Positions 25,924 to 34,715 of a stretch of 37,364 nt of DNA are shown one piece after another. The stretch lies in contig JAFYGB010000058.1 in NCBI GenBank assembly GCA_017543445.1, positions 1 to 37,364 of the forward strand, read 5' to 3'. A program made the translations under genes and the position numbers. Source of the stretch: Lachnospiraceae bacterium. GTDB lineage: Bacteria > Bacillota > Clostridia > Lachnospirales > Lachnospiraceae. Position 1 is the first letter of the stretch; every line of letters starts with the position of its first letter. Below the pieces are notes generated by a model. It saw nothing but the letters and a program-made list of their open reading frames with translations. It was not told the origin of the DNA and ran no database searches.

Positions 25924-26550
25924 CTATGCTTCTCCGGCATAAAACACGTTTTTGTATCCGGCCTGCATGGCCGAAGCCGCCGCGATCCGGCTTTTAACGC
26001 CCTTCGCGCACACAAAGCAGATCGTTTCATCTTTCTTCGCGGGCAATGTTTCGATCGCATCCAGACATCGTGCCAGCGGTATATTGACCGCACCCGGAAG
26101 GTGACCTTCCTCGTACTCTTCGGCATCCCGAACATCGATGATGTGAACGCCTTCACGCATACGCTTTAGATCCTCGTAAGGCAGCCGCCGCGGGGCTTCC
26201 GTTGTTTCCACTCCCGGCGTCACTCCATGTCGCAGCGTCGGATCCGCTGCTCTTGATGCGATCGTCTCGGCTTCCCTCGCGGAGATCGTAGTCTGCATGC
26301 CGAATACCGGCGCTCCGTCTCCCATGATGCCCTTAATATAGACCTGGGCGACATGCTGCACACAGCGGTGACAGTCCAGCAGATCCATCAATCGGTAAGC
26401 CGGTGTGATATCCGGCTCGTCCGCTTCTTTCTTCACGATCAGCAGCCACTCGTGCACGATCTGCGCCGCCGCCTGGCGAGTGACCCCGGTCAGGCGCTTA
26501 GCTAATTCGCGGAGCTCGCACTCCTCTGTAACTGCACTTTTAGTCTGCAT
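25924..26550 (-). CDS. Rhodanese-domain protein with N-terminal helical domain
   Basis: 208 residues, no signal peptide. The C-terminal half (about 115-208) is a rhodanese domain: IDVRDAEEYEEGHLPGAVNI and the active-site loop CAKGVKSR with the cysteine that carries sulfane sulfur (about 179). The N-terminal half is an unassigned helical region with a Cys-His pair in LLDCHRC. Its start codon overlaps the 3' end of the GH27 gene by 11 bases, so the two are translationally coupled although their functions look unrelated. The protein may end early: the usual last helix after the FYAGE strand is missing. Confidence 0.85.
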   Translation of the reverse strand: MQTKSAVTEECELRELAKRLTGVTRQAAAQIVHEWLLIVKKEADEPDITPAYRLMDLLDCHRCVQHVAQVYIKGIMGDGAPVFGMQTTISAREAETIASRAADPTLRHGVTPGVETTEAPRRLPYEDLKRMREGVHIIDVRDAEEYEEGHLPGAVNIPLARCLDAIETLPAKKDETICFVCAKGVKSRIAAASAMQAGYKNVFYAGEA

Positions 26551-28369
26551 TCGGAATTACCTTGATCGTCACATTGTCACAGGCAGCCAGTTTGGAAACG
26601 CTGAATACACCGGTCGTGTTCATTGTAAACATTCCATCCCAAAGATCGATGACGATAAAATTCTTTGCATCGGCATTCCACTTATGATCCGCCGGCAGTT
26701 TATCACCGATCGCATGAAGGATCGCAGAAACATCTACGCTGAAATCACCGGTCTTCTCGGTCTCGCTCACATTGATGAACGAAAGTGCCACGGATCCATC
26801 CGCAAGCGGTTTCGCCAAAATGTCCACGCGGTCAATGTTCGTCAGATACTCACGATCTGCTGCATATTTGCCGGGAATGCTGCTGTAGATACGTTTTGCC
26901 TGCACGCCGAGCGCATCCTGATTCAAGTCGATCAGGCGCTTATTTGCAATGATCTCATAGATCGGATCACCGACCTGCACGCGGCGCAGATCCAGGCCCA
27001 GCATCAGCGGCGCACTCAGCATACACCACATCGCCATATGTGTACGGTACATCGTGTCGGTCAGGTCGTTCATGCCGATCATCAGCATATCCGGATCGTT
27101 CCAGCCCTTATCGAGTCCGGCATACTCGTCCATGATGACCGCCTTGTTGTACTGTGTGGTCACACTCGGTGTGTAGTCGTCCTTCCAGTTTCCGACGCCC
27201 GGATCCCCGTCACTGCCGACGCGGAAGGTAATGTCGTTCAGGATACGCCAGGTATCGCCGACTTTATAGCCCCAGTTCTGCGGCTGCGTCTTACCCCATT
27301 CGCAGATCGAAAGGAGGATATCGTGGTCGGGCTTCTGCTTATTGAGTTCCTTCAACAGAGTCGAATACGAACAGAGCGTATTCTCCTGCCGACGATGGTT
27401 CATAAGACGAACGATATTCGCGCCCGCTTCCAACTTCAATGTGATATCGGAAAATGTTTCAAACACAGTCCGCACCGGTGTCTCCGGTACGAAACCATCA
27501 TACGAAAGGCTCGTCGTCTTCTCGCCGACAGCTACTTGCAGCCAGCTGCCCTGGCCCTCTTCGCGAGATGTCGCATACTCGATCTCGAGGTGATAATCTC
27601 CGGCCTTCGGAACACTTACGTGAAATACCAGCTCGCCGCTACGTGCGCCTACCGGAGAAGGTCCGGGGCCGGTCCCGTCATAGGTACCGATGCTCGTTAC
27701 GCAGTCAGAAGTCTTCACGATGCAGCCGCCGCGGATCTCTCCATCGGTCAATGCACTATAGGTTTTATCGAAGCCATCTCCGAAAACACGGATCGACCGG
27801 ATGGCCGGCGCAAACACATATTTTGCATTCTGCTTATCGGAGAAGGTCGCATTGTCCCAAAGGTAATAACAGTTGTCGACTTTGATAAAATCGATGTCCC
27901 AGTCGATGTACGACTTCGCATCGTCCGCCTCGTGGCCGCAGGTGCCTACATAAGCGCTGCTGCACAGTTTGACGCCGATGTCGTTATACATGCCGAACTT
28001 CAATCCGCGTGCGTGGATGTAGTCCGCCATCGCCTTAAAGCCGCTCGGAAAGCGCTCGGCATTGCTGACCAGAAGCCCGTTTTCACGTGTGTTCTGATAG
28101 CAGCCGTCGTCCAAAACGACATACTGATATCCCAGTTTATCCAGTCCCAGGGCTACCAGCGCATCCGCCATCTGCCGTGTTAAGCTTTCGGTATTCCCGG
28201 TACCGAAGGCATTCCAGCTGTTCCAGCCCATGGGCGGCAGGTGCCCTTTCTTCTTTCCGTGAACGACGTTTCCGTCGTCAAATGTGTCATACCGGTATTC
28301 CGGCAGGACCTCATGGGGTCCCTGTTGGATCTTCGCTTCGATCTCTTCGCGGATCTCTTGCTCTGTCAT
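26540..28369 (-). CDS. Cytoplasmic GH27 alpha-galactosidase with inserted binding module
   Basis: 609 residues, no signal peptide. The catalytic barrel starts with PPMGWNSWNAFG (about 45-56). The nucleophile Asp lies in FIKVDNC (about 165) and the acid/base region is WNDPDML (about 423-429), both as in family GH27. Between them sits an extra module of about 130 residues (about 205-340; AGDYHLEIEYATSREEGQG) that looks like a CBM35-type beta-sandwich interrupting the barrel. A C-terminal beta domain follows (from about 490). It should remove terminal alpha-galactose, or a related sugar, from imported oligosaccharides. Start ATG 28369 (MTEQEIREE) follows AAGGAG; GTG 28390 lies upstream of that site. 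Confidence 0.9.
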   Translation of the reverse strand: MTEQEIREEIEAKIQQGPHEVLPEYRYDTFDDGNVVHGKKKGHLPPMGWNSWNAFGTGNTESLTRQMADALVALGLDKLGYQYVVLDDGCYQNTRENGLLVSNAERFPSGFKAMADYIHARGLKFGMYNDIGVKLCSSAYVGTCGHEADDAKSYIDWDIDFIKVDNCYYLWDNATFSDKQNAKYVFAPAIRSIRVFGDGFDKTYSALTDGEIRGGCIVKTSDCVTSIGTYDGTGPGPSPVGARSGELVFHVSVPKAGDYHLEIEYATSREEGQGSWLQVAVGEKTTSLSYDGFVPETPVRTVFETFSDITLKLEAGANIVRLMNHRRQENTLCSYSTLLKELNKQKPDHDILLSICEWGKTQPQNWGYKVGDTWRILNDITFRVGSDGDPGVGNWKDDYTPSVTTQYNKAVIMDEYAGLDKGWNDPDMLMIGMNDLTDTMYRTHMAMWCMLSAPLMLGLDLRRVQVGDPIYEIIANKRLIDLNQDALGVQAKRIYSSIPGKYAADREYLTNIDRVDILAKPLADGSVALSFINVSETEKTGDFSVDVSAILHAIGDKLPADHKWNADAKNFIVIDLWDGMFTMNTTGVFSVSKLAACDNVTIKVIPNAD

Positions 28370-28433
28370 GGTTTCGTCTCCTTTTCTCACACATCGGGTG
28401 GCTCATCTTCCGATTCCATCTTCTATCCCCACT

Positions 28434-28462
28434 ATTATACTGAAAACAGGCTAAAATTACAA
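28434..28462 (-). promoter_or_regulatory. sigma-A promoter of the GH27-rhodanese operon
   Basis: Minus strand: -35 TTGTAA (28457-28462), 17-base spacer, perfect -10 TATAAT (28434-28439). Confidence 0.7.
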
Positions 28463-28483
28463 GAAAAACCGTACGTTCCGAAT

Positions 28484-28513
28484 AAAAAAAGCGAGTCGGT
28501 CGCGCCAGCTCGC
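28484..28513 (-). terminator. Terminator after the diguanylate cyclase gene
   Basis: GCGAG (28491-28495) pairs with CTCGC (28509-28513), followed on the minus strand by seven Ts. It ends the CE15-GGDEF transcription unit. Confidence 0.8.
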
Positions 28514-28554
28514 CCACTTTATCGCTCATTCCGGCGAAACAGCGCGGGGCACGA

Positions 28555-29619
28555 TCATGCGCCTCTTCGTTTCTTTCCGGATATCCGATAGTATTCGTCT
28601 TTATCACTGTACATATAAGTTTCGGCCTTCGTGGTCAATGCATTCATCTCGACCGTTTCCGCCGGGCTGATCGCATAACCGACAGCGACCTGGTATCCGG
28701 CTTCCCTCACCTGCTGCTGCATGCGACGCATCCGCTCTTCGATCTTCGCAGCACTCCAATCCACGGTATAAGCGAGAAACTCATCGCCGCCGATGCGGTA
28801 GGTATCCCGTTTTCCGAAGTTTTCCTGTACGATATGTGCAATGGTCTGCAACATGATATCGCCGGCTTTATGCCCCTCGGAATCATTCAAAGCATGCAAA
28901 CCATTAACGTCGATGTAGACGCAGCCCAGGCTCTCCACGCAGCGGCGTGGGTACTCCTCCAGATGCCACTCATAAGAATTCCGGTTATTCAGTCCGGTCA
29001 GCTGATCCTTCTCACTCATGTATTGCAGCCGTTGCTCCAAAATGAAGCCATTGACCTTAACACGAACGATGAAAAAGATGCTGACGATCGCTAACATTCC
29101 GAACATGACCGCATTCGAAACATCCGCCATCAGGACCTTACCGCTCTTCGTATGAAAGGCAGCGATCAAATAGATCGTGACATAGAATACCAGAGACGCG
29201 ATCAAACGGATCGGGCGATCGATAAACAAAAGCGGCAGGAACAGCATCAGCACGACAAACGTGACGGTCTGCTCACCGGGGCGGCACAAAGTGCCCATCA
29301 ATATACCATAGATCATGAACAGCGAGATCGCTGCATAGATGGTAAAATACGTAAACTTCAGATGCTTTCGGCAAACTCCCGCAAGAATGAATATGATCAG
29401 GGAGCCGAATACACCAAAAATGAAAACGACCCAGGCTTCCGACATCGCGCGGATCACGAAAACATAGAGAAGTGTCATGATCGTGGTCAAAACGAATGCA
29501 ACCAAAGAATATATCGTCAAGGTAACGACATTCGCATATTCGATCTTATCTTTTACCAAGCGATATGCGTCTTTATCGACATCCGCATAAATGAGTGCGC
29601 TCTTGATCCTCTCCAGCAT
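28555..29619 (-). CDS. Membrane diguanylate cyclase (GGDEF)
   Basis: 354 residues. Six hydrophobic segments (about 30-195) form an N-terminal membrane sensor of no recognised type. The GGDEF domain follows (about 205-350), with DQLTGLNNRNSY at its start, the VYIDVNGLHALND metal/GTP site and an intact GGDEF at 277-281. It should make cyclic-di-GMP from two GTP. The inhibitory RxxD site usually just before GGDEF is not present in its proper register, so product inhibition may be weak. ATG 29619 has AGGA upstream. The gene follows the CE15-like gene by 49 bases. The same window holds a c-di-GMP-I riboswitch. Confidence 0.93.
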   Translation of the reverse strand: MLERIKSALIYADVDKDAYRLVKDKIEYANVVTLTIYSLVAFVLTTIMTLLYVFVIRAMSEAWVVFIFGVFGSLIIFILAGVCRKHLKFTYFTIYAAISLFMIYGILMGTLCRPGEQTVTFVVLMLFLPLLFIDRPIRLIASLVFYVTIYLIAAFHTKSGKVLMADVSNAVMFGMLAIVSIFFIVRVKVNGFILEQRLQYMSEKDQLTGLNNRNSYEWHLEEYPRRCVESLGCVYIDVNGLHALNDSEGHKAGDIMLQTIAHIVQENFGKRDTYRIGGDEFLAYTVDWSAAKIEERMRRMQQQVREAGYQVAVGYAISPAETVEMNALTTKAETYMYSDKDEYYRISGKKRRGA

Positions 29620-29668
29620 CTTCGGTCCTGTCCCGCCTGTCGGCGTCCTCGTGATTTGTCAATAGTTC

Positions 29669-30799
29669 TCAGACGTCCTGTCCCGCGAATACCGTCGTTT
29701 TTAACGGTGCGAGATCCGGCATCGTATCCATCCCGTAGTACATACGGTCGAAATACGGCAGGAAGAGTTTCACATCCTCTTCGATCACCGCATGGCCGAC
29801 CAGATGGAAATGTACGACCAGATGGTCGCTGAGTCCATGCTCTGCATAGACTGCATTTGCCTTTTTGTAACACTCCCACATAGCGGGTGCATTGACCCAG
29901 TCCTCGCCGGTACAGGCGGCTATGATGAAGTAATACCGGTTTTCGTCCATCGCCATCACGGGCAATGTATCCTGCTCCGGCGAAATGTCCGACGGCTCCT
30001 TAAACTCCAGGAACCGATCGACGAACCAGCCGCGCTCCGCATCCGACTGCAGACAGCTGAGGGGTTCGTTCTGTGTATAGGTGTAGGCCTGCGGACCACC
30101 GATGGATGAAAAATCGTAGGTCTTGCCTTCAGAAACATAGTTATACTGTGCCAGGCCGCCCGCACCCGAACAGGTCGGGATCGTCAGACGGAAGCGTTTT
30201 TCGAACGCGCCGCAGACGGCGGTCGCCTTACCCCAGCGGGATACACCGGTCACCATGGATGCTTCGGCATCCAGGCCGAACTCGAGATCCAGGCCTGCAT
30301 AGACCGCATCCAAAACTTTCGATGCGCCCCATGCCCACGCCATCAGACCACCGGTCTGGGTTGCGGGATCCTCGGTGTAAGGATATAGATCGTAGAAGGC
30401 TCCGAGGCGACGTATGTCATCCGAAGCGATCTGATAACAATCCATAAAAAATACGACTACCCCCTGCTCCAGAAGGTAATCCTTCGGGAAGATCGGATGC
30501 ATGCAGACTAAGAACGGAAGTCCTTTAAACTGCGAACTCTCGGCATGACGAAGGGCAAATGCCTCTCGTTGCTCCGATGTCGGAATATAAGCATGAACAA
30601 TGAACGACGAAGTCTTCTCTCCGGCTTCCACTATGATCTTCACCAGTTCTCCACCGATTGGTGCAAACGGGTTCTTCGGTTTCTCTGCGCCAGGCGCAGT
30701 TGCGGGATCCTCACCAAGTCTCTCATACGTGACATTCTCACCCTCACGCCAGATGCCATACATCTGTTCCTCGTAAAACTTCTTAACGTCCATATTCAT
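29669..30799 (-). CDS. CE15-like (glucuronoyl-esterase family) protein, cytoplasmic
   Basis: 376 residues, alpha/beta hydrolase fold. The CE15 nucleophile motif appears as GVSRWGKA (185-192, Ser 187; usually GCSRxGK), followed by the family's GAFEKRFRLTIP and SGAGG stretch. His of the triad is probably in HLVGHAV (about 337). At the place where many members have Glu (PQESG), this protein has PTCSG (Cys 210), so the acid must come from elsewhere or is lost. No signal peptide is present, unlike most known glucuronoyl esterases, which act on lignin-carbohydrate esters outside the cell. ATG 30799 has GGAAGG upstream. Confidence 0.82.
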   Translation of the reverse strand: MNMDVKKFYEEQMYGIWREGENVTYERLGEDPATAPGAEKPKNPFAPIGGELVKIIVEAGEKTSSFIVHAYIPTSEQREAFALRHAESSQFKGLPFLVCMHPIFPKDYLLEQGVVVFFMDCYQIASDDIRRLGAFYDLYPYTEDPATQTGGLMAWAWGASKVLDAVYAGLDLEFGLDAEASMVTGVSRWGKATAVCGAFEKRFRLTIPTCSGAGGLAQYNYVSEGKTYDFSSIGGPQAYTYTQNEPLSCLQSDAERGWFVDRFLEFKEPSDISPEQDTLPVMAMDENRYYFIIAACTGEDWVNAPAMWECYKKANAVYAEHGLSDHLVVHFHLVGHAVIEEDVKLFLPYFDRMYYGMDTMPDLAPLKTTVFAGQDV

Positions 30800-31722: not shown

Positions 31723-33549
31723 CTACTGCCGGTTGAGTACCGTACTGTTGATACGTTCCTGCAGTTGTTTTCGGTTTTTTACGCCGATCTTTGCGAAAAT
31801 ATTTGAGATATGGTTCTTTACCGTGGATTCCGATATGAACAGTGTCTTACCGATCTGCGCGCGCGTCTTACCGGAAAGATATTCCCGTAAAACATCGATC
31901 TCACGTTCGGTTAGTTTTCCACTTGCCAAGAGTTCCTGAAGGAAGGCCTCGGCCAGATCGACCGGCTCCGCCTCATAAAGTCCGGCATCCTCTCCGCTTT
32001 CCTCCTGAACTTCCGGCACATCGACTTCTGCGCTATTCTCCCGCGTATCGTTATGGTGGAGCATACGACGTACGATCCAGATCGCAGCTACGATCAGGGC
32101 CGCGGCGCCGAGAATAAGCACTAAGATCCAAAAAAGCATTTTGGCTGCATTTGGAGCACTGACGGGATCTTTGAAGCCGAGAGAATTGACTCCCGGATAC
32201 ATTTTAGCTTTCGTGCTCTCAAAATAGCCGTTTGCGATCTTTTCAACAACTTCCGTCGGGACCTTCTCCCCCTTACGGTCGGAGTTGATGATGTTGTAGT
32301 TCTCTCCGTCCTTCAGCGTTGTCGTGACTTTTTCGTCGCGGATCACGCAGGCGGTGAAATCGATCGTTCCGTCTCTGCCCACCGTTGTTTCGGCATTTTC
32401 CGAAATGACCGAATGAAAATTGAGGTGCTCCTCATCGGCGGACCGGTTGTTTTCGATCGTACAAAAAGCAAACTGTGTAACGCCGGTCGGCACGCCGATG
32501 TTGATCTGGTCGGCCGGGCAGACATAGATCGCCCCCTCTTCCTGCGCGGTGTTTTCGGAGATCGTACTGTTCAGGATATAGACCGGTGACTCCTCATTGC
32601 TTTGAATAACGATACCTCCGCCATAGGTATCGGCGCTATTTCCCGATATCTCACAGGAGTCTACCGTCAGTTTCGTGTTCGTACAAAGAAGTCCGCCGCC
32701 GTAAGGTCCCTGATTACGCAGGATCTCGCTGTCTATAAGCAGAAGTTTGGAGTTTGCGACCGCCAGACCTCCGCCGCCCTGACGGAAGGAGTTTTTCTCT
32801 GCAAAAACGACACGTTCGTTGTCGGCGATCACCAGTTTCTCGACCGTCCCGTTGACACCGCCGAGAACGACTACACTCGTGTAAGAATGGTTCTCCCTGA
32901 ATTTCACACGGGACATAGACAGTTTCGTATTCTTTCCGTTGCACCAGAAGATGCCGCGTTCACTTGTGTTGTTTAAAAATGTGCAGTCAGCGATATCCAG
33001 GCTGGCGCGTGTTCCGAGCCCGACATTTCCGTCCGTATACTGAAAGTACATTGCCGCGCCATATTTCGCACAGTAATTCTTCACCACACAGGAGGAAACC
33101 TTAAACTTCAGATACCCCTTCGCGGTAATACATCCCAAACCGGTCCGGTCCCCGTGGAATGCGTCGAATGACGCAGCTGCATTCGGGTCCCCTGCCGGCA
33201 TCGTATAAGCCCCGTCAAATGTAATGTTTTCAAACGAAACTTCGATCAACTCGCTTTCGACTTCGGAGCCTTCGATCGAAAAATGCGCACGTTTCAACGT
33301 GGAGTTCCCCGGCTTCCCGATGAACTTCACGCTCCGATCGATCTTGATATATAAGTCACTGTCCTGAAACTCGATGTCTCCGACGTAGATCTCTTCCCGA
33401 TCCGAGGCCAATGCCTGCATAAGTCCGGCACGATCCGTGACATAAACCTTATCCTCATCGGCCGAAACGACAGACTTCGAGAAGGAAAAGAAAACGGATA
33501 GAAAAACGATTATGATGATCAGTGATCGTATTGCTCGCAGATGTTTCAT
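31723..33549 (-). CDS. Transmembrane one-component regulator: beta-helix sensor plus LuxR HTH
   Basis: About 608 residues. Signal peptide 1-30 (MKHLRAIRSLIIIIVFLSVF, cut near VSA/DE). Residues about 33-420 are exported and show right-handed parallel beta-helix repeats with N-rich and G-rich turns (ADCTFLNNTSERG, DSCEISGNSADTYGGG, NSTISENTAQEEG), as in pectate-lyase-like or adhesin folds. A membrane span (471-494) leads to a cytoplasmic acidic linker and a LuxR/GerE helix-turn-helix (542-601; LTEREIDVLREYLSGKTRAQ, then ISESTVKNHISNIFAKIGV). The protein should sense something outside and bind DNA directly. ATG 33549 has only a distant GAAAGG; ATG 33591 lies at the expected transcript start. Confidence 0.88.
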   Translation of the reverse strand: MKHLRAIRSLIIIIVFLSVFFSFSKSVVSADEDKVYVTDRAGLMQALASDREEIYVGDIEFQDSDLYIKIDRSVKFIGKPGNSTLKRAHFSIEGSEVESELIEVSFENITFDGAYTMPAGDPNAAASFDAFHGDRTGLGCITAKGYLKFKVSSCVVKNYCAKYGAAMYFQYTDGNVGLGTRASLDIADCTFLNNTSERGIFWCNGKNTKLSMSRVKFRENHSYTSVVVLGGVNGTVEKLVIADNERVVFAEKNSFRQGGGGLAVANSKLLLIDSEILRNQGPYGGGLLCTNTKLTVDSCEISGNSADTYGGGIVIQSNEESPVYILNSTISENTAQEEGAIYVCPADQINIGVPTGVTQFAFCTIENNRSADEEHLNFHSVISENAETTVGRDGTIDFTACVIRDEKVTTTLKDGENYNIINSDRKGEKVPTEVVEKIANGYFESTKAKMYPGVNSLGFKDPVSAPNAAKMLFWILVLILGAAALIVAAIWIVRRMLHHNDTRENSAEVDVPEVQEESGEDAGLYEAEPVDLAEAFLQELLASGKLTEREIDVLREYLSGKTRAQIGKTLFISESTVKNHISNIFAKIGVKNRKQLQERINSTVLNRQ

Positions 33550-33593
33550 AAGGATGTCTGACCGGGAACCTTTCGTACAAATAGTATGCATTT

Positions 33594-33622
33594 ATTATAC
33601 ACTTTCAGCCGTCAAAATTCAA
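33594..33622 (-). promoter_or_regulatory. sigma-A promoter of the beta-helix/LuxR gene
   Basis: Minus strand: -35 TTGAAT (33617-33622), 17-base spacer, perfect -10 TATAAT (33594-33599). The transcript should start near 33587, which rules out ATG 33591 as the translation start. Confidence 0.75.
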
Positions 33623-33677: not shown

Positions 33678-33714
33678 ATAAAAAGCCTCCGTGGGATCCT
33701 GCCCACGGAGGCTT
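33678..33714 (-). terminator. Terminator after the DGDxD lipoprotein gene
   Basis: AAGCCTCCGTGGG pairs perfectly with CCCACGGAGGCTT around a 6-base loop (33683-33714), followed on the minus strand by TTTATGTTTTT. Strong intrinsic terminator. Confidence 0.9.
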
Positions 33715-33746: not shown

Positions 33747-34664
33747 TTAGTTGACGATACCCACGTACAGGGACAATGCGTCATCGAACTTACTCTGTAT
33801 GTCAACGCCGACCTTGATCTCCTTGCCGTTCTTGAAATAGTGGAACTCGGCCGAGTCAAAACGTGAAGTGATCTGCGGAGCTTCCGTAAGTGTGTCACCA
33901 TATTTCCCCATATAGGTGTACATCTTGCCCTCTTCTGCCAGCGGCGTACAAATATCCCAAACCGCCTTGATGAGTGCATTGACATCGTCGATGGTAGCCT
34001 TGGAACCGGTACGAACCTGCGACTTATCACGATATCTGCCCATGTACTCATAATCTCCGAGCTGGGACTTCAGGTCATCGTAAGTGAAGCCGAAGATCTC
34101 CTTCATGCTTTCGGTCTTCTTTGCATCATCCGGTGCATCCACATGCTTCGTGGAACCATCCGAATTTCGGATCGTATAACCGATGAAGTCTTCTTCGAAC
34201 TCATCGATCGCCTTTTCCACCGTCATGTAGCTGATGAACTGGTTCATGATCTTGAAACTGGTCTTATCCGAACTCCACTGCGGTTTCCAGTCGCCGGCGA
34301 CGAGATACTCATTTGCGGATTCATAATTCGCCGGATCGTCCAAATAGTACTCGGTATAACCTTCCGTGCAATCTCCGTCCGAGTCAAAGTAATACTGCTC
34401 GCTGTACTCTTTTGCATGATAATGCTCTTTCGCCTGCGAGCCTTCTGCGGGGGCCAGTTTGTCGCCGATGATGCCGGAAACAAACGCATTTCCGGAAACA
34501 GGCGCAACCGCCGTGGTGCTGTCCGTCTTACCACTGTCTGCCTTCGTCGTACTGTTGTTGCTGTCCGCTTTGGTGCCTGAGCCCGACGGCCCGTCTTCCT
34601 TCTCACAAGCAGCGAGTGCAAAAACCATGATAAGTACGAGTGCGATACTGATTAGCTTCTTCAT
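33747..34664 (-). CDS. Lipoprotein of unknown function
   Basis: 305 residues. Signal peptide with lipobox LAAC (Cys near residue 20). A low-complexity spacer (Ser/Thr/Lys/Asp, 24-50) is followed by a soluble domain rich in Tyr, Asp and Glu (KEHYHAKEYSEQYYFDSDGD) with no family I recognise; the last 60 residues look like a beta-sheet (AEFHYFKNGKEIKVGVDIQ). Start ATG 34664 has GGAGGAGG upstream; the longer frame to 34886 would run through the previous gene's end. It is a single gene with its own terminator; the leader holds a perfect palindrome. Confidence 0.85.
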   Translation of the reverse strand: MKKLISIALVLIMVFALAACEKEDGPSGSGTKADSNNSTTKADSGKTDSTTAVAPVSGNAFVSGIIGDKLAPAEGSQAKEHYHAKEYSEQYYFDSDGDCTEGYTEYYLDDPANYESANEYLVAGDWKPQWSSDKTSFKIMNQFISYMTVEKAIDEFEEDFIGYTIRNSDGSTKHVDAPDDAKKTESMKEIFGFTYDDLKSQLGDYEYMGRYRDKSQVRTGSKATIDDVNALIKAVWDICTPLAEEGKMYTYMGKYGDTLTEAPQITSRFDSAEFHYFKNGKEIKVGVDIQSKFDDALSLYVGIVN

Positions 34665-34680: not shown

Positions 34681-34715
34681 GGGACATAAAATTGATACTT
34701 CAATTTTATGAGATC
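34681..34715 (-). promoter_or_regulatory. Palindromic leader hairpin before the lipoprotein gene
   Basis: ATAAAATTGA (34686-34695) pairs perfectly with TCAATTTTAT (34700-34709) around a 4-base loop, extended by GGGA/TCCC. It ends next to the GGGAGGAGG ribosome site, so it could be an operator or a translational control hairpin. Confidence 0.45.

What the first reader, a model, noticed from the sequence alone, without database searches (positions are those of the whole stretch)
31723..33622. Transmembrane regulator joining an exported beta-helix to a LuxR-type DNA-binding domain
Seen: signal peptide, about 390 residues of beta-helix-like repeats, one membrane span, acidic linker and an intact LuxR HTH, in one chain. 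LuxR/NarL HTH domains normally sit behind response-regulator, autoinducer-binding or STAND domains. A carbohydrate-binding or polymer-binding beta-helix outside the membrane directly coupled to a cytoplasmic HTH would be a one-component sensor of an external polymer or contact. A membrane XRE regulator lies directly downstream in the same direction, so two membrane-tethered transcription factors may act together.
Basis: partly seen in the sequence, partly recalled or inferred. Interest (0 to 1): 0.72.

Follow-up and report, generated by a model that had tools for sequence, protein, structure and literature searches.

The report
Membrane-tethered beta-helix LuxR-type gene regulator
This bacterium makes a one-piece sensor whose outer part is a ladder-like beta-helix and whose inner part is a gene switch, and a conserved DNA signature suggests that it controls a neighbouring gene for a surface lipoprotein.

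Summary
One intact ORF encodes a signal peptide, a right-handed beta-helix of about 350 residues, one membrane helix, a disordered linker and a GerE/LuxR HTH. Eleven other full-length relatives (43-68% identity) keep this order, all 6 held genomes of the genus carry it, and a more distant branch does too (5 of 6 hits; the sixth is cut by its contig end).

The XRE neighbour is not conserved. A promoter signature is: RGGAC-N6/7-RGGAC-N14/15-GTCCYATT-N20/21-TANNNT lies before an adjacent lipoprotein gene in 12 of 12 loci, although gene order varies and the lipoproteins belong to three families that align only in their signal peptides. Its shorter form occurs once in 11 of these 12 genomes, twice in the other (both beside the regulator), and in 2 of 390 other genomes sampled from the class.

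Best reading: a membrane-tethered one-component activator dedicated to a neighbouring surface-lipoprotein promoter. DNA binding, activation, ligand (perhaps a polysaccharide) and signalling step are inferred. The palindrome may also serve as a terminator in some loci. It is a new variant of a known kind: transmembrane transcription regulators, including the 12-TM LuxR activator DadR.

The parts
31723..33549 (-). Regulator gene: signal peptide, beta-helix, TM, linker, GerE HTH (608 aa from the likely start 33549; the longest frame starts at 33591)
33460..33549 (-). Signal peptide (about residues 1-30); lipobox at this place in L020 and L021
   Evidence: hydrophobic N-terminus with VVSA before DEDK; lipobox calls
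32335..33393 (-). Exported right-handed beta-helix, residues 53-405
   Evidence: AlphaFold model, Foldseek, Pfam Beta_helix
32071..32127 (-). Transmembrane helix, residues 475-493
   Evidence: hydropathy 3.05 over 19 residues; helix 468-499 in the model
31915..32070 (-). Cytoplasmic linker, residues 494-545, mostly disordered
   Evidence: pLDDT below 50 at 497-530; mean pairwise identity 0.18 in 493-531
31762..31914 (-). GerE/LuxR helix-turn-helix, residues 546-596
33594..33622 (-). Putative promoter of the regulator gene, TTGAAT-17-TATAAT
   Evidence: TATAAT aligns with one in L013
34730..34767 (-). Putative operator: half-sites AGGAC, GGGAC and GTCCTATT before the lipoprotein gene
34703..34708 (-). 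Putative -10 box TAAAAT, 21 bases after GTCCTATT
33747..34664 (-). Lipoprotein gene, the proposed target; folded domain 60-305 with no named family
   Evidence: homologues in 7 of 12 loci; model; no Pfam match over cut-off
33683..33714 (-). Terminator-like hairpin between lipoprotein gene and regulator gene

Best explanation
It is a transmembrane one-component transcription activator. A signal peptide exports the N-terminal part; a right-handed beta-helix stands outside the membrane, one helix crosses it, and a flexible linker holds a GerE-type HTH in the cytoplasm. When the beta-helix meets its ligand (most likely an extracellular or envelope polysaccharide, judged from the fold only) the proteins cluster or dimerise, so that the tethered HTHs occupy the three half-sites RGGAC-N6/7-RGGAC-N14/15-GTCCYATT. 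The last half-site lies where a -35 box would be, so binding recruits RNA polymerase to the promoter of the neighbouring lipoprotein. In most of these genomes it is the only such promoter, so the circuit serves one surface lipoprotein or its operon. Shown: protein architecture, its conservation, and the co-occurrence of the protein with the promoter signature. Inferred: that this HTH binds that site, activation rather than repression, the kind of ligand, and clustering as the switch.
For: Same domain order in 12 of 12 full-length members and in 5 of 6 distant ones. Selection on ectodomain (mean pairwise identity 0.61) and GerE (0.79) but not on TM (0.24) or linker (0.18). Predicted beta-helix. 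The half-site AATRGGAC was seen in the six genus loci (I had also noticed GTCCYAT upstream in L020 and L021) and then scanned for: the pair recurs at the same 22-23 base spacing in 4 of the 6 loci outside the genus (L016, L018, L022, L023), with the right half alone in L020 and L021. The full signature, formulated on these 12 loci, is in 12 of 12 by construction, in 0 of 69 other GerE loci and in none of 30 shuffles. Its shorter form is found once in 10 of 11 relative genomes and twice in L020's, once in the own genome and in 2 of 390 other class genomes. In the 12 loci it precedes lipoprotein genes of three families.
Against: No binding or expression was measured. The palindrome can form a hairpin: its inner arms vary but stay complementary (38 of 60 pairs), 7 of 12 have T-rich tails, and the terminator scan flagged it. 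Six of the 12 loci are of one genus, so the lines are not independent. Pfam's Beta_helix reaches E 0.001 in only 6 of 12 members. Foldseek TM-scores are low, 0.20-0.39 for the 7 matches at E 0.001 or better. Nothing shows a ligand. The distant branch has no such site within the small flanks scanned.
Confidence: 0.65

Rival explanations
1. Same protein, another switch: ligand binding leads to shedding of the ectodomain, an intramembrane protease cuts the TM helix, and a free GerE fragment goes to the promoter (regulated intramembrane proteolysis).
For: Linker and TM are unconserved and the linker is disordered, as a cut-and-release design allows. Proteolysis acts on ToxR, TcpP and CadC (PMC7593790, passages), and RseP cuts RsgI in its TM helix (PMC12203970, abstract).
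Against: No protease gene lies in a conserved position next to the regulator among the gene clusters that I could name; no conserved cleavage motif is visible, since no column of 458-545 is invariant.
Confidence: 0.3
2. The palindrome is not an operator but a terminator or RNA hairpin of the gene upstream; the regulator acts elsewhere.
For: Inner arms complementary in 38 of 60 pairs although their sequence varies; T-rich tail in 7 of 12; flagged as terminator-like in the window. Chance matches elsewhere (L156) look like a terminator.
Against: L014, L015, L016, L017 and L019 have 0-3 T in the ten-base tail. A terminator does not explain the fixed 8-base core, the third half-site, the 20-21 base spacing to a -10 box, or a near-unique occurrence in genomes that carry the regulator.
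Confidence: 0.15
3. The regulator is a repressor of the lipoprotein promoter, relieved by the ligand.
For: The site overlaps the -35 region, which also suits a repressor.
Against: No good -35 hexamer is seen at the proper place, so the promoter looks as if it needs help (sequence; judged by eye). DadR, HcdR and CadR, membrane LuxR proteins, are activators (PMC9734109).
Confidence: 0.2
4. A sequencing artefact or chance fusion joins two genes.
For: None found.
Against: Same order in 11 other full-length relatives and in 5 distant ones.
Confidence: 0.01

Closest known systems
Transmembrane transcription regulators, TTRs (ToxR, TcpP, CadC and others; surveyed in PMC10269533)
   Same: DNA-binding domain and membrane span in one protein with an extracytoplasmic part; 50,302 such proteins were counted and about 56% are single-pass (Results read in part).
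   Different: Here the HTH is C-terminal and of GerE type, and the outer part is a beta-helix. The words LuxR and GerE do not occur in that paper's main text; its tables were not seen. ToxR and CadC carry an N-terminal winged helix (recalled).
10-12-TM LuxR activators of Coriobacteriia (DadR, HcdR, CadR; PMC9734109)
   Same: C-terminal GerE/LuxR HTH behind membrane spans; activates neighbouring genes in response to an outside compound (passages).
   Different: There the sensor part is a 10-12 helix membrane domain; here a single TM and a beta-helix. Proteins of the multi-TM type also occur among the relatives (L120, L121).
RsgI/SigI polysaccharide sensing of Clostridium thermocellum (PMC12203970, PMC4711584; abstracts)
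   Same: Works alike if the ligand is a polymer: an outer part senses an extracellular polysaccharide and transcription changes inside.
   Different: RsgI is an anti-sigma factor acting through SigI; here the HTH is in the same chain and no sigma factor is involved.
GerE/NarL helix-turn-helix family (Pfam PF00196; GerE structure 1fse)
   Same: GerE domain in 12 of 12 members; among 19 PDB sequences matched, all by the HTH, 1fse is second best at 37 bits.
   Different: No receiver, autoinducer or STAND domain; membrane tether instead.
Two-TM GerE proteins of related genomes (L125, L127)
   Same: An outer part of about 300 residues and a C-terminal GerE.
   Different: Two membrane segments and no beta-helix match in Pfam.

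Membership tests
Transmembrane transcription regulator (TTR) | DNA-binding domain and at least one TM region in one protein | tested here: met
   GerE in 12 of 12; TM segment in 12 of 12
Transmembrane transcription regulator (TTR) | Regulates transcription from the membrane in response to an outside signal | not testable with these tools
   needs expression and localisation tests
GerE/LuxR HTH family | PF00196 match over the curated cut-off | tested here: met
   63.9 bits against 23.5
NarL-type response regulator | N-terminal receiver domain | tested here: not met
   no receiver found by Pfam or NCBIfam; the NCBIfam matches cover the HTH and lie below cut-off
Right-handed beta-helix ectodomain | Beta-helix profile and fold | tested here: met
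   PF13229 over cut-off in the window protein, but only 6 of 12 members at E 0.001; model and Foldseek agree; weak PDB sequence match to Rhombotarget A, 21.4 bits
Beta-helix polysaccharide lyase or hydrolase | Catalytic residues of a PL or GH family | not tested
   no residue-level comparison was made
DadR-type 10-12-TM LuxR | 10-12 N-terminal TM helices | tested here: not met
   signal peptide plus one TM
RsgI-type anti-sigma factor | N-terminal anti-sigma domain with partner sigma factor | tested here: not met
   no such domain in Pfam or NCBIfam scans
Intrinsic terminator (rival for the palindrome) | Hairpin followed by a T run | tested here: inconclusive
   T-rich tail in 7 of 12; flagged in the window

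The most novel reading that the evidence does not exclude
A self-contained surface circuit: a tethered beta-helix receptor reads an extracellular polymer and switches essentially one promoter in the genome, always for an exported protein encoded next door. The membrane-bound HTH finds its site because co-translational export of regulator and lipoprotein holds their common locus at the membrane, so tether, adjacency and exported target form one design. The lipoprotein cargo has been exchanged between lineages while receptor and promoter stayed together.
Probability: 0.25. Interest if true: 0.82.

Novelty: new variant of a known kind. Interest (0 to 1): 0.62.

Why it matters
How a DNA-binding domain fixed to the membrane finds its promoter is an open question for transmembrane regulators. 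This family offers a clean test: one receptor, one predicted operator with fixed spacing to a -10 box, and a neighbouring target. It would also show a way for Gram-positive gut bacteria to read outside polymers without a kinase or a sigma factor. If receptor and promoter indeed move as a unit between unrelated lipoproteins, they could serve as an orthogonal sensor part.

Tried and rejected
XRE partner: tblastn of the window's XRE protein found no full-length homologue in L013-L023. HTH-only matches lie in L014 and L017 (4.7-5.5 kb upstream) and beside the regulator in L181 and L182. L013 and L021 show little sequence downstream; L013's 726 bases hold an esterase-like frame instead. Frame artefact: rejected by conservation.

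GerE site consensus: I recall RWWTRGGYNNYY for Bacillus subtilis GerE, which resembles AAATAGGACTT. Two searches and passages of two papers (PMC4750369, PMC5595907) did not show it, so it stays a recalled lead.

The first operator pattern missed even the window's site, because one half-site there reads GGGACTT; later patterns replaced it. A second palindrome in a genus genome (G681, L142) and the two class matches (L154, L156) lie near or in unrelated genes. My notebook gives the reversed control as 9 of 195; counting the printed rows gives 8.

Target lipoproteins: no Pfam match over cut-off for the window's one or for the members of clusters cl6, cl2, cl7, cl8 and cl26 that I scanned. The lipoprotein model arrived late (residues 60-305 folded, mean pLDDT 80.3); a profile search of PDB sequences gave nothing below E 0.02.

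Literature: searches listed no report of a beta-helix/TM/GerE regulator; only the held open-access library was searched, and most listed papers were seen as listings.

Full report
1. The observation. The ORF at 31723-33591 on the minus strand has 622 codons and no internal stop. Pfam finds GerE (63.9 bits) and Beta_helix (36.3 bits), both above their cut-offs. The first ATG lies two bases behind the TATAAT of the putative promoter 33594-33622, and the nearest relative, L013, starts at the place of the second ATG. I take 33549 as the likely start and number residues from there (608 aa). AlphaFold on 12 sequences gives mean pLDDT 79.6 and pTM 0.67: beta strands over 53-405, a long helix at 468-499, disorder at 497-530 and a helical HTH at 548-607; 27 of the 35 ten-residue blocks of 51-400 reach pLDDT 85. 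Foldseek against the PDB lists 7 matches at E 0.001 or better: phage tailspikes, chondroitinase B, an AlgE epimerase and a polygalacturonase, at 8-13% identity and TM-scores of 0.20-0.39. A profile of the ectodomain matches one PDB sequence, Rhombotarget A, weakly (21.4 bits, 66 positions). The fold class is supported; no close relative is solved.

2. Not an artefact. A scan of genome contigs found 182 stretches that encode a relative; the best 80 were kept. Eleven of the 80 match over the whole length, the other 69 match the HTH part only. All 12 full-length proteins carry GerE; Pfam's Beta_helix reaches E 0.001 in 6 of 12. Identity to the window protein is 43-68%. All 6 held genomes of the genus have the ectodomain and a GerE frame of 603-632 codons. 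In 299 family genomes 6 had a match: the own one and one other of the genus at full length, four by short matches. In 391 class genomes 3 had a match, only the own one at full length. In the family around L020's genome 8 of 246 genomes match at E 1e-20: two known ones and six distant ones. Of the six, five run on into TM and GerE; the sixth is cut by its contig end. Of those five, all have GerE, four Beta_helix and four a Listeria-Bacteroides repeat. Titles of L014, L015, L017 and L022 name rumen or omasum; L013, L020, L021 and L023 carry the label RUG (rumen uncultured genome, recalled); L016, L018 and L019 state no source.

3. Where selection acts. Mean pairwise identity is 0.29 in the signal peptide, 0.61 in the beta-helix, 0.24 in the TM region, 0.18 in the linker and 0.79 in GerE; no column of 458-545 is invariant, and the linker is 45-74 residues long. 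A rigid coupling is therefore unlikely (inference); clustering or proteolytic release fits a loose tether. L020 and L021 have a lipobox where the others have no such motif, and L171 shows one too (sequence), so there the N-terminus should be lipid-anchored outside.

4. The neighbourhood. The lipoprotein gene at 33747-34664 has homologues in 6 of the 11 relative loci, in five directly upstream of the regulator as here and in L018 convergent. In L016, L022 and L023 the gene after the regulator is another lipoprotein (alignment A4), and in L020 and L021 a third kind (A5). The three profiles align with each other only over 26-28 residues of the signal peptide. The XRE gene has no full-length homologue in the 11 loci. 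The window's lipoprotein is predicted to have a folded domain at 60-305 after a disordered start.

5. The promoter signature. Aligning regions upstream of the lipoprotein gene in the six genus loci showed a conserved inverted repeat. Searching its half-site in all 12 loci found the pair 22-23 bases apart (start to start) in 10, including 4 of the 6 loci outside the genus; L020 and L021 have the right half only. Reading the neighbouring bases gave a third half-site and a -10 box at fixed distance. The full signature was therefore formulated on these 12 loci and is in 12 of 12 by construction; the informative results are 0 of 69 control loci with other GerE genes (726,375 bases) and none in 30 shuffles. 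It lies before the adjacent lipoprotein gene in each, whatever its side; L020 has a second one before the regulator. The shorter form RGGAC-N14/15-GTCCYATT-N20/21-TANNNT occurs once in 10 of 11 relative genomes and twice in L020's, both beside the regulator (reversed control: 1 of 11), and once in the own genome; of 390 other class genomes 2 have it, while the reversed control hits 18 of 391 by my count. The looser inverted repeat is in 6 of 6 genus genomes and 10 of 189 other relatives; reversed control 8 of 195. With up to 3 mismatches the three-half-site pattern finds in the own genome this site in both orientations and three other places at 3 mismatches; the reversed control finds 5.

6. 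Reading. The signature goes with the regulator rather than with one lipoprotein family, sits where an activator would stand in for a -35 box, and was not seen in the small flanks of the distant branch, whose recognition helices differ. I conclude that it is probably the operator of this GerE domain and that the target is the neighbouring lipoprotein. This rests on co-occurrence; no binding was measured. A reservation: the inner arms of the palindrome vary yet stay complementary (38 of 60 pairs) and 7 of 12 have T-rich tails, so a second role as terminator is possible. Six of the 12 loci belong to one genus, so the number of independent lines is smaller than 12.

7. Known or new. [quoted passage not shown] abstract, passages and part of Results). 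Membrane LuxR activators are proven in Eggerthella (PMC9734109, passages). In 61 relatives of the window's genome I fetched 18 of the longer GerE frames, not all; six show clear membrane architectures: two with about 11 TM, two with two TM and an outer part, one multi-TM, and one TPR-TM protein. None of the four scanned has a Beta_helix match. The combination described here did not appear in my literature searches. I class it as a new variant of a known kind.

Noticed in passing
window 26540-30799 (-): Downstream of the XRE gene lie a glucuronyl-esterase-like protein, a membrane GGDEF protein and an alpha-galactosidase, suggesting plant polysaccharide use; not shared with the other loci in the gene clustering.
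   Followed up: partly
L125, L127 (unnamed relatives): Two-TM proteins with an outer part of about 300 residues without Pfam match and a C-terminal GerE domain: another kind of membrane GerE regulator.
   Followed up: partly
L116 (unnamed relative): Multi-TM protein with two GerE matches in one frame.
   Followed up: no
L016, L020-L023, downstream of the regulator: Runs of exported proteins and lipoproteins without known family follow the signature (clusters cl6, cl2, cl7/cl26, cl8).
   Followed up: partly
L181 6926-7315 and L182 1574-1963: An XRE-type gene lies divergently beside the distant beta-helix GerE regulator; its HTH resembles that of the window's XRE protein.
   Followed up: partly
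L119 (genome of 67% completeness): TPR-TM-GerE protein that looks like a Bacteroidota type (recalled); perhaps contamination of that genome.
   Followed up: no
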